Assembly (NCBI GenBank): GCA_005223085.1
Contig: NJBP01000067.1
Span: 1 to 10,091, forward strand
DNA: 10,091 nucleotides
Source of the DNA: Candidatus Aerophobetes bacterium Ae_b3b
Lineage (GTDB): Bacteria > Aerophobota > Aerophobia > Aerophobales > AE-B3A
Direction: 5' to 3'
Shown here piece after piece: positions 7,364 through 9,985 of this stretch. Both the position numbers and the translations under genes were made by a program. The notes under the pieces were generated by a model, which worked only from the letters and a program-made list of their open reading frames with translations, was not told where the DNA came from and searched no databases. Position 1 is the first letter of the stretch. The number at the start of each line of letters is the position of its first letter.

Positions 7364-8605
7364 TCAATTCTTTTTTATAAGAAAATAAAGCCGTCCCAGG
7401 GATTTAGTGCGCTCGGTACGTTTTAGCGCCTGATCTCCTTCACCAAAGTAAACGTCTGCTCTCCCTGGGCCTTTTATGGCGATCCCGCTGTCCTGACAGA
7501 AAACAAAATGAGAGTATTCAGCCTCACCTTCCACATTACCGACTTTGTTTAGCCTGGGGGCTCGATACTCAATGTAAGCTAAGGACCCTAGAGGAAAAAT
7601 GCTCTTATCCACGGCAAGGGATCTTAGGGGAGTAAGTTTTATCCCCGTGGCCCCATACGGACCATCTTCCTCCTCTCTGTGGAATATGAACCTTTGGTTT
7701 TGGTTTAAATAGCGATCTATCTCGTGGGGATGGTGGGAAAAATACTCCTTTATCCCCTGCAGGGTAAGCTCTCCTGCGGAAAGCTTGCCATCTTCTCGCA
7801 GAAGTTTGCCCAAACTGGTATAGGGTCGTCCGTTACTGACAGCATAATTTGCCCAAAAGCTTCGTCCGTCCTCCAGCACTATTTTACCCGACCCCTCAAT
7901 CATAAAATAGAATCGGTCTATTTTGCTCCTTAAGTACACCAGCTCAAGACCTTTTCCTTCCAGTACCTTCTCCTGGACAATATGTCTTCGGGTATGGTAA
8001 GGAACAATCTCCTCTCTCTTTTTGTCAATGCGGTAGACGATCTTTTCCCCCGCCAACTGGGGGTCGAACTCACCTAGCTCAGCTACCTTTAGATCTGAAG
8101 GTTCAAGGTAGAGGGGATATCGGTAATCAGCGTGCTTACTAAGACTTGCTTTATGAACTGGAGAGTAGTAGCCGGTGAAAAGAACCCTACCCTGGCCTTT
8201 TTGTCCAAAAGCTAGATAGATGTTGAAGCGCTTTCGTATTAGCCGATTTAGCTCTTTTGCGTCTCTGGCTTCCCCAAGAACCTTAAAGAAAAGCTCGGCT
8301 GATTCTTTAATTAGCTCAGCACCCACTCTCTGTTGGCCGAAGGGAAGTTTTTGATTGGAACTTATTTTTTGGGAAAGAAACTCTTTTTCTCGCTCAAACG
8401 CCTTCTTTAAGCTAGCAAGGTCCACAGGGGTAAATGAAGGAATTTCATCTCCTTCTACCTGGATAAGATACCTTAAGAAGGGAGGTTCTGGTGGTCGTTT
8501 GGGAATCCAGACCAAAAAGTAATAAAGGATCCCAACTTCTGCTACCAGAGAGCAGGCAATAAAAACCACCAGGAAAGATACTTTGGACCTAAAAATAGAA
8601 GCCAT
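7364..8605 (-). CDS. mltA: Membrane-anchored lytic murein transglycosylase A
   Basis: MltA cleaves the MurNAc-GlcNAc bond of peptidoglycan with formation of 1,6-anhydro ends, acting in the periplasm. The 413-residue protein starts with a basic stretch and a long hydrophobic segment (about 11-33), most likely a membrane anchor; C18 is not in a good lipobox (FIAC), unlike the E. coli lipoprotein. The MltA barrel domain follows, with F143-T-G-Y-Y-S-P and I236-E-G-S-G-K-I near the substrate groove. The C-terminal 3D domain keeps three conserved aspartates: D333, D372 (C-Q-D-S-G-I-A-I-K-G) and D384 (R-A-D-V-Y-F-G), including the catalytic one. No good Shine-Dalgarno is visible before the ATG, and no alternative in-frame ATG exists upstream. 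It implies an outer-membrane-bearing organism. Confidence 0.93.
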   Translation of the reverse strand: MASIFRSKVSFLVVFIACSLVAEVGILYYFLVWIPKRPPEPPFLRYLIQVEGDEIPSFTPVDLASLKKAFEREKEFLSQKISSNQKLPFGQQRVGAELIKESAELFFKVLGEARDAKELNRLIRKRFNIYLAFGQKGQGRVLFTGYYSPVHKASLSKHADYRYPLYLEPSDLKVAELGEFDPQLAGEKIVYRIDKKREEIVPYHTRRHIVQEKVLEGKGLELVYLRSKIDRFYFMIEGSGKIVLEDGRSFWANYAVSNGRPYTSLGKLLREDGKLSAGELTLQGIKEYFSHHPHEIDRYLNQNQRFIFHREEEDGPYGATGIKLTPLRSLAVDKSIFPLGSLAYIEYRAPRLNKVGNVEGEAEYSHFVFCQDSGIAIKGPGRADVYFGEGDQALKRTERTKSLGRLYFLIKKN

Positions 8606-8664: not shown

Positions 8665-8692
8665 ATTCTATCAAGAAAGAGAATCTCGTCAA
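8665..8692 (-). promoter_or_regulatory. Sigma70 promoter candidate for mltA, next to the insertion element
   Basis: TTGACG (8692-8687), a 16-base spacer and TAGAAT (8670-8665, 5 of 6) lie about 60 bases before the mltA ATG. The boxes start within a few bases of the proposed end of the TnpB element, so the insertion left the core promoter intact but replaced what lies upstream. A second TTGACA at 8699-8694 is too far from the -10 box (23 bases) to work with it. Confidence 0.55.
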
Positions 8693-8694
8693 AT

Positions 8695-8792
8695 GTCAAC
8701 TACTGACAGCTAAAGCAGTCAGCTTGTAGTTACAAAAGCACTACTTAGGGGCTGGTTGACAGACAGCCCAACCTGAGGAGCTTGCCCCTCAG
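8695..8792 (-). ncRNA. Predicted omega-RNA (TnpB guide RNA scaffold)
   Basis: Four hairpins follow one another across the 3' end of tnpB and past its stop. They are 8773-8792 (CTGAGG/CCTCAG), 8749-8769 (GGGCTG/CAGCCC), 8726-8744 (GTAGT/ACTAC) and 8703-8722 (CTGAC/GTCAG). In characterised TnpB systems the guide RNA is made from exactly this overlap of tnpB 3' end and right element end, with the guide being the flanking host DNA. Here the guide would be the roughly 16-20 bases read from 8694 downward. The 5' limit of the RNA is unknown and may lie further inside tnpB. Confidence 0.55.
8703..8722. repeat. Right-end subterminal hairpin of the TnpB element
   Basis: CTGAC (8703-8707) and GTCAG (8718-8722) pair, then an A:A mismatch, then GC/GC closing a TAAA loop. 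The tnpB stop codon lies inside the stem. Its eleven-base core AGCTAAAGCAG recurs at the other end of the element. Confidence 0.75.
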
Positions 8793-9852
8793 TAAAGTTC
8801 TTTCTTATATTCCGAGCTCCATTGAGATCAGCGTTAAGCTCAAAACCACAAGCTTTACACTTAAATGTATTACCTGTTCTCTGACTTTTGAGGATATTTC
8901 CACAACGAGAACACTTTTGAGAGGTATAGCGAGCATCTACAAAGGCAACAGGAACACCAATTTGATTTGCTTTGTAAGTCACCAGCTCCTGAAATTTCCT
9001 AAATGTCCAAGTAGAAAGCTTGCGATTCATCTTTCTGCCTTTGGATTTCTGTTCTCTAATACCTTGCAGTTTTTCAAATACTATACAAGGATTTTGAAGC
9101 TCAGATACATACTGGACCAATTCCTTAGACTTTTGGTGAAGATAATCAAGCTTAAACCGTTTCTCCCTGCCAGAGATTCTTTTTAAGACTCTTTTGGCTG
9201 AAGGAGTGCCTTTAGCTTGTAAGGCTTTTCTTAGTCTAAAGAAATGGTTGGATTTATAGGTTAAATAACCTCCAGAGAAGAACTTGTTATCTGAGGTAAC
9301 AGAGATATTCTTAATCCCCAAATCTACTCCGATAAGGATAGACGGCTCTTTGAGAACAACTGTTTTCTTAAAGTGTAGGCAAAGATAGAAATCTTTATTC
9401 CTCTTAATCAAAGTAGGAGTATTGGTTAAAGTCCAATCTTTATGCTGGTTTAAGTAATCATAAGGAATAATTTTAGTTTTAATTCTACCAAAAGAAGTAG
9501 ATAGAGAGCAGTAACCTTCCTTGAAAGTTATAGTTCTTACATCATATCTTAAAAATGGCTTTTTGAACTGAGGTTTGCTCTTTCTCTTTCTTTTGATAAT
9601 AGCTCTCATTCTATCACAAACTACATCCCTAGCGGAACAGACAAACTGAGCAGGAAGGTTAAACTTTTCTCTAGCAGGATAGTAAGTTAAGTGATGGAGC
9701 TTAACCTTGTTGGTTATCTTTTTATCCCAAGCAATAGAAGAAAGATAGTTAAGAAGATTATTATATTCAAAAAGAGTTTTATCTAACTTTTCTCTATTTT
9801 CTGGAGAAATATTTAATTTTACCTTAAAAGTTTTAACTATTTCTTTTTCCAT
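8719..9852 (-). CDS. tnpB: TnpB RNA-guided endonuclease (IS605 OrfB family)
   Basis: TnpB is a compact RuvC nuclease guided by omega-RNA, related to the ancestor of Cas12; it cuts DNA next to a short target-adjacent motif and helps keep the element in place. The 377-residue protein appears intact. RuvC-I is G176-V-D177-L-G-I-K-N, RuvC-II is V258-F-E260-K-L, and RuvC-III is N340-A-D342-L-N-G-A-R-N, giving the full D-E-D triad. A zinc ribbon with C314-S-R-C317 and C332-K-A-C335 lies between the last two. The basic N-terminal half would bind RNA and DNA. An in-frame ATG at 9903 exists but lies upstream of the promoter, so the ATG at 9852 is chosen. Base use is more AT-rich than in neighbouring genes, consistent with transfer. 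No tnpA is present. Confidence 0.94.
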   Translation of the reverse strand: MEKEIVKTFKVKLNISPENREKLDKTLFEYNNLLNYLSSIAWDKKITNKVKLHHLTYYPAREKFNLPAQFVCSARDVVCDRMRAIIKRKRKSKPQFKKPFLRYDVRTITFKEGYCSLSTSFGRIKTKIIPYDYLNQHKDWTLTNTPTLIKRNKDFYLCLHFKKTVVLKEPSILIGVDLGIKNISVTSDNKFFSGGYLTYKSNHFFRLRKALQAKGTPSAKRVLKRISGREKRFKLDYLHQKSKELVQYVSELQNPCIVFEKLQGIREQKSKGRKMNRKLSTWTFRKFQELVTYKANQIGVPVAFVDARYTSQKCSRCGNILKSQRTGNTFKCKACGFELNADLNGARNIRKNFTEGQAPQVGLSVNQPLSSAFVTTS

Positions 9853-9861
9853 TTCATATAT

Positions 9862-9890
9862 ATTATAACTATATTTTTTAAACAAGTCAA
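9862..9890 (-). promoter_or_regulatory. Promoter of tnpB, giving an almost leaderless transcript
   Basis: TTGACT (9890-9885), a 17-base spacer and a perfect TATAAT (9867-9862) stand so close to the gene that only nine bases separate the -10 box from the ATG at 9852. The transcript should start two to four bases before the start codon. This agrees with the absence of any Shine-Dalgarno there. Confidence 0.7.
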
Positions 9891-9910
9891 GGAGGAAAAG
9901 CAATTCCTCC
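9891..9910. repeat. Left-end inner hairpin GGAGGAA / TTCCTCC
   Basis: Perfect 7-bp arms (9891-9897 and 9904-9910) around a six-base loop, adjoining the tnpB -35 box on one side and the subterminal hairpin on the other, with a two-base overlap. It is probably part of the folded left end used by the single-strand transposase, or an insulator against read-through. Confidence 0.6.
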
Positions 9911-9928
9911 GCCAGCTAAAGCAGGCGG
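9909..9928. repeat. Left-end subterminal hairpin of the TnpB element
   Basis: CCGCC (9909-9913) pairs with GGCGG (9924-9928), then an A:A mismatch, then GC/GC closing TAAA. Loop, mismatch and inner pairs are identical to those of the right-end hairpin while the outer stem has changed by compensating bases, which supports a conserved structure. Confidence 0.75.
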
Positions 9929-9985
9929 TCTCCTTGCCCTGTTTCTATGATTGTTAGCATTTTCTTACCGATGGCCAGGGCGCGG

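What the first reader, a model, noticed from the sequence alone, without database searches (positions are those of the whole stretch)
8675..8792. Predicted omega-RNA whose guide would read the mltA promoter region
Four consecutive stem-loops cover the tnpB 3' end and the right element end. If the element ends at the TTGAC motif (8699-8695), the guide is the minus-strand flank from 8694 down, which contains the -35 box of the mltA promoter candidate. TnpB would then target alleles of this locus that lack the insertion. The sequence shows the hairpins and intact nuclease residues; the guide boundary is inferred from known TnpB systems.
Basis: partly seen in the sequence, partly recalled or inferred. 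Interest (0 to 1): 0.65.

Follow-up and report, generated by a model that had tools for sequence, protein, structure and literature searches.

The report
TnpB guide RNA at transposon end

Summary
Window 8702-8792 (minus strand) folds into four stem-loops. A covariance model built from 48 relatives, without the window, hits 8695-8775(-) at E=1.9e-16, the only hit in the 2-Mb genome. Stems covary across bacteria and archaea. The SL2 loop GUCAAC can pair with the terminal GUUGAC as a pseudoknot.

The right end at 8695/8694 is confirmed three ways: alignment with a same-genus genome, G001, resumes at 8694; relatives lose all conservation right after TTGAC; a 48-bp mini-element in the same genome has the same ends and a precise empty allele in G001. 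The element is 8695-9946, follows ATCAT (family TAM: TTCAT) and encodes one TnpB with intact D177/E260/D342.

The guide starts 5'-ATTTGACGAGATTCTC and contains the mltA -35 box, but this looks incidental. The claim that TnpB would target uninserted alleles is not borne out by the only one found: G001 has CTCGT instead of a TAM, mismatches at guide 9-11, and 44 extra bp. Only the precise donor joint (ATCAT|ATTTGACG), not seen in any genome, would be a target by inference. Ordinary biology, well resolved: new member of a known kind.

The parts
8695..9946 (-). IS200/IS605-superfamily tnpB-only element (IS1341-like), 1252 bp, left end at 9946, right end at 8695
   Evidence: Same-genus G001 alignment breaks at 9946 and resumes at 8694; ends match relatives and a 48-bp mini-element in the same genome.
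9947..9951 (-). ATCAT, presumed TAM/target site 5' of the left end (relatives: mostly TTCAT, some TTTAT-like)
   Evidence: Same spacing to the left-end hairpin as TTCAT in relatives such as L128; sequence shared with G001 up to here.
9900..9937 (-). left-end hairpin: outer stem GCAA/TTGC, inner stem CCGCC/GGCGG, loop shared with the right-end hairpin (CTGCTTTAGCTG)
   Evidence: Sequence; same arrangement in relatives.
8719..9852 (-). tnpB, 377 aa, RuvC D177/E260/D342 and zinc-ribbon C314/C317/C332/C335 intact
   Evidence: Pfam Cas12f1-like_TNB 2.3e-23 and OrfB_IS605; NCBIfam guided_TnpB 1.9e-53; residues invariant in alignment.
9862..9890 (-). sigma-70-like tnpB promoter TTGACT-17-TATAAT (11/12)
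   Evidence: consensus match only
8695..8792 (-). omega-RNA 3' scaffold (5' end not determined): SL1 8792-8773, SL2 8769-8749, SL3 8744-8726, SL4 8723-8702, 3' tail 8701-8695
   Evidence: SL1 rests on single-sequence folding, the model covers 8775-8695
8755..8760 (-). GUCAAC in SL2 loop, 5' strand of proposed pseudoknot with 8700-8695 (GUUGAC)
   Evidence: Complementary in nearly all relatives, but the search pattern fixed both strands. Of elements found by protein search that depart from the motif, L032, L070 and L074 keep pairing by wobble and L034 has one mismatch.
8695..8700 (-). GUUGAC, element terminus and 3' strand of proposed pseudoknot
8675..8694 (-). guide (host flank): ATTTGACGAGATTCTC (16 nt, 8694-8679), up to 20 nt to 8675
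   Evidence: Boundary from G001 and conservation drop; 16-nt length from ISDra2 (PMC8612924).
8665..8692 (-). mltA promoter candidate TTGACG-16-TAGAAT, overlapped by the guide; both hexamers unchanged in G001
7364..8605 (-). mltA (MltA + 3D domains), downstream neighbour

Best explanation
This is the right end of a tnpB-only IS200/IS605-superfamily (IS1341-like) insertion. The tnpB transcript runs through the right end; TnpB binds the structured 3' part as omega-RNA, and the first ~16 nt of host flank (ATTTGACGAGATTCTC) serve as guide. In the known mode of action the RNP cuts a copy of the locus from which the element has been removed so that TAM and flank are rejoined (ATCAT|ATTTGACG...), and repair from the intact copy restores the element. 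Shown here: element ends, conserved RNA scaffold, intact nuclease residues, guide sequence. Inferred: transcription, processing, RNP assembly, cleavage, and transposition by a TnpA in trans. The overlap of the guide with the mltA -35 box follows from the landing site and is not needed for function.
For: Covariance model of 48 homologs hits 8695-8775(-) at 1.9e-16, single hit in genome. Covariation with 0/500 shuffles. G001 alignment resumes at 8694. In 58 elements information content is 0.01-0.19 bits at every position +1 to +24 (the 2.0 bits before it are imposed by the search pattern); four copies in G026, all fetched by protein search, agree up to TTGAC and then differ. A 48-bp mini-element with the same ends has a precise empty allele in G001. 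SL4 has a UUUA tetraloop at -20 to -17, as reported for ISDra2 omega-RNA (PMC10097598). TnpB D/E/D intact.
Against: No RNA data. TAM is ATCAT, not the family's TTCAT. The G001 comparison is not a clean empty site: 44 bp present there are missing next to the right end. No tnpA in the element; only a fragment and a RAYT-like Y1 hit in the genome, so mobility is doubtful.
Confidence: 0.88

Rival explanations
1. Stranded element: scaffold and TnpB still read as intact, but the insertion site has been altered by a 44-bp loss at its right side after insertion, so the present guide was never next to a TAM and matches no natural target.
For: G001 has 44 bp between ATCAT and ATTTGACG; no cognate tnpA found in the genome; single full copy.
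Against: TnpB catalytic residues, omega-RNA structure and both end hairpins are intact, unexpected after long decay. The 44 bp could equally be an indel that preceded the insertion or occurred in G001.
Confidence: 0.35
2. Regulatory use: TnpB-omegaRNA binds the mltA promoter region and represses mltA, as TldR proteins do with their targets.
For: Guide covers the -35 box; published TnpB data indicate that about 8 matched bp can support binding without cleavage (PMC12803034).
Against: RuvC residues are intact, whereas TldR proteins are nuclease-dead (own knowledge). In cis the guide's flank is preceded by the element end TTGAC, not a TAM, so the mltA promoter next to the element should be ignored; G001 lacks a TAM there too.
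Confidence: 0.04
3. The hairpins are only transposon-end structures and give no functional guide RNA.
For: SL4 and the left-end hairpin share a loop, as transposase-binding hairpins do; no expression data.
Against: SL3 and SL2, which lie inside the tnpB 3' end, covary too; no terminator was called on this strand in the region.
Confidence: 0.08

Closest known systems
ISDra2 TnpB and its omega-RNA/reRNA (Deinococcus radiodurans)
   Same: omega-RNA overlaps tnpB 3' end and right end, guide is the host flank, 3'-terminal pseudoknot, terminal stem with UUUA loop at -20 to -17 (PMC10097598, PMC8612924)
   Different: No tnpA beside tnpB; TAM TTCAT-type rather than TTGAT; terminus GTTGAC; shorter scaffold (5' pseudoknot strand at -66 to -61 rather than about -105)
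tnpB elements of Aquificota, Methanothrix, Thermoplasmata and others with right end GTCAACC...TACAAGC-hairpin-GTAGTTGAC (80 loci returned)
   Same: Same right-end architecture, same type of left-end hairpin, TnpB up to about 45% identical
   Different: Window element has ATCAT not TTCAT, and its TAM is not the start codon of a gene
TldR (nuclease-dead TnpB-like RNA-guided repressors)
   Same: Guide overlapping a promoter
   Different: Here the nuclease residues are intact and the guide is simply the transposon flank

Membership tests
TnpB RNA-guided nuclease | TnpB domains, intact RuvC D/E/D and zinc ribbon | tested here: met
TnpB omega-RNA (reRNA) | Conserved structured RNA ending exactly at the right end, directly followed by variable flank | tested here: met
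TnpB omega-RNA (reRNA) | 3' pseudoknot | tested here: inconclusive
   Complementarity nearly universal, but the search pattern fixed both strands; among unbiased elements three keep it by wobble and one has a mismatch.
TnpB omega-RNA (reRNA) | RNA is made and bound by TnpB | not testable with these tools
   No RNA data
IS200/IS605 superfamily element | Subterminal hairpins at both ends, insertion 3' of a TAM, no target duplication | tested here: met
   precise for the 48-bp mini-element, with a 44-bp difference at the window locus
IS200/IS605 superfamily element | Y1 transposase TnpA in the element (absent in IS1341-type members) | tested here: not met
   Only tnpB in 8695-9946; two weak or partial Y1 hits elsewhere. 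Filed therefore as tnpB-only, IS1341-like.
TldR repressor | Loss of RuvC catalytic residues | tested here: not met

The most novel reading that the evidence does not exclude
The wider element family uses the antisense of a start codon (TTCAT = ATGAA) as target and, in the Aquificota-type members, carries its own Shine-Dalgarno sequence at the left end, so that it lands directly upstream of genes while giving them a ribosome-binding site. In the window's genome a 48-bp derivative sits exactly upstream of the xerC ATG.
Probability: 0.45. Interest if true: 0.5.

Novelty: new member of a known kind. Interest (0 to 1): 0.3.

Why it matters
It extends a well-defined TnpB/omega-RNA family (GTCAACC...GTAGTTGAC right ends, TTCAT-type TAM) to an uncultured bacterial lineage, gives a structure model that finds its members across bacteria and archaea, and shows how a guide can be read and checked from genome comparison alone. 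It also shows that a guide covering a promoter need not mean regulation, and that an uninserted relative need not be a target.

Tried and rejected
Rfam scan: no match at E<=1. Single-sequence protein scans of genome contigs and viral contigs found no relatives; whole-genome protein searches and a right-end DNA pattern did. Second full copy in the genome: none. Guide matches elsewhere: none with 0-1 mismatch except the locus itself; of the 2-mismatch hits none follows TTCAT or ATCAT, and one in G001 (C88:4928-4943) follows TCCAT, the TAM of the mini-element, with mismatches at guide 10 and 12, taken as chance. TTTAT in G001 (CTTTTTATG) as the original TAM: rejected, the shared flank ends before it. 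G001 as product of excision: rejected as a simple explanation, since precise excision would leave ATCAT|ATTTGACG. Promoter repression: considered and set low. A paper on guide-RNA-promoted transposon spread (PMC11758364) was not held, so its TAM list could not be compared.

Full report
Setting. The window is a whole contig (C67) of a 2.04-Mb draft genome. A minus-strand ORF, 9852-8719, matches TnpB (Pfam Cas12f1-like_TNB and OrfB_IS605; NCBIfam guided_TnpB 1.9e-53). Downstream in the same direction is mltA; at the far end of the window a tRNA-Leu gene appears to begin, cut by the contig end (ARAGORN, which needs a whole gene, reports none).

Observation. Folding 8695-8795 of the minus strand gives four consecutive hairpins, and a longer stretch is more stable than all 200 shuffles. 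Folding alone would be weak evidence. Homologous elements were therefore collected: by TnpB protein and by a DNA pattern taken from the right ends (105 stretches, 80 returned, in Aquificota, Methanothrix, Thermoplasmata, Chloroflexi and others; about half show a tnpB in the DNA fetched, many of the rest being cut short). An alignment of 48 right ends without the window shows strong covariation (cells paired 93.2% vs 81.0% shuffled; double changes 131 vs 34.5; 0/500 shuffles; slid controls 24-49% paired). The model made from it finds the window at 8695-8775(-) with E=1.9e-16 and nothing else in the genome. Caveats: SL1 (8792-8773) lies almost wholly outside the model, and the GUCAAC/GUUGAC pseudoknot was fixed by the search pattern, so its invariance there says nothing. 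Among elements found by protein alone that depart from the motif, L032, L070 and L074 keep pairing through G-U wobbles and L034 has one mismatch.

Ends. G001, of the same genus, has no TnpB of this family. In 58 elements the flank carries essentially no information from the first base on (0.01-0.19 bits). Four copies in one genome (G026), all fetched by protein search before any pattern was used, agree up to TTGAC and differ after it. The left end follows a TAM that is TTCAT in most relatives; the window has ATCAT with the same spacing to the left hairpin. A 48-bp mini-element in the same genome (C15:14958-15005) begins AGAAA after TCCAT and ends GTAGTTGAC; G001 has the exact empty site AGCTCCAT|CTTC. 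This independently fixes both ends.

Guide and target. The guide reads ATTTGACGAGATTCTC (8694-8679). It includes the -35 hexamer of a promoter candidate whose two hexamers are unchanged in G001. In G001 the corresponding sequence is CTCGT|ATTTGACGGCCTTCTC: no TAM and mismatches at guide positions 9-11. Published work puts the heteroduplex needed for cleavage at about 12-16 bp (PMC12803034), and another TnpB demands full matching at weak TAMs (PMC11043419). So this allele is predicted not to be cut. G001 also has 44 bp between ATCAT and ATTTGACG that the window lacks; whether these were lost before, at or after insertion, or gained in G001, cannot be told from two genomes.

Mechanism. By analogy with ISDra2 (PMC8612924) and the plasmid gene-drive work (PMC11870625), the RNP would cut the rejoined donor site after excision. 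TnpB residues needed for this are intact. No tnpA lies in the element, and the genome shows only a 63-aa open frame and a 172-aa RAYT-like Y1 protein; mobilisation in trans is an assumption.

Verdict. A real, well-conserved omega-RNA of a known kind. The promoter overlap is best read as incidental; the targeting claim is plausible for the precise donor joint only.

Noticed in passing
G000 C15:14958-15005 (L003 2959-3006): 48-bp mini-element made of the left tip and right hairpin of this element, inserted directly upstream of the xerC start codon (TAM TCCAT = antisense of ATGGA); exact empty site in G001:C112 (L198). Probably arose by recombination between the shared CTGCTTTAGCTG hairpin loops.
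   Followed up: yes
L031, L034-L036, L067, L068, L070-L077 left ends: In Aquificota-type relatives the TAM TTCAT is the antisense of a start codon and the left end carries a Shine-Dalgarno-like GGAGG a few nt from that ATG; 12 of 21 TAM ATGs open an ORF of at least 100 aa against 21% of control CAT sites (copies are not independent).
   Followed up: partly
window 9946/8694 versus L029 886-929: 44 bp present in G001 between ATCAT and ATTTGACG are absent beside the insertion in the window.
   Followed up: partly
G000 C14, C24, C29, C50 (L005-L008): Other, distant TnpB genes or fragments in the genome, 26-33% identical in the matched part.
   Followed up: no
L095 (bacterium SKS5.bin53): Closest end sequences to the window's (same hairpin loops); its tnpB reading frame appears to end early.
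   Followed up: no
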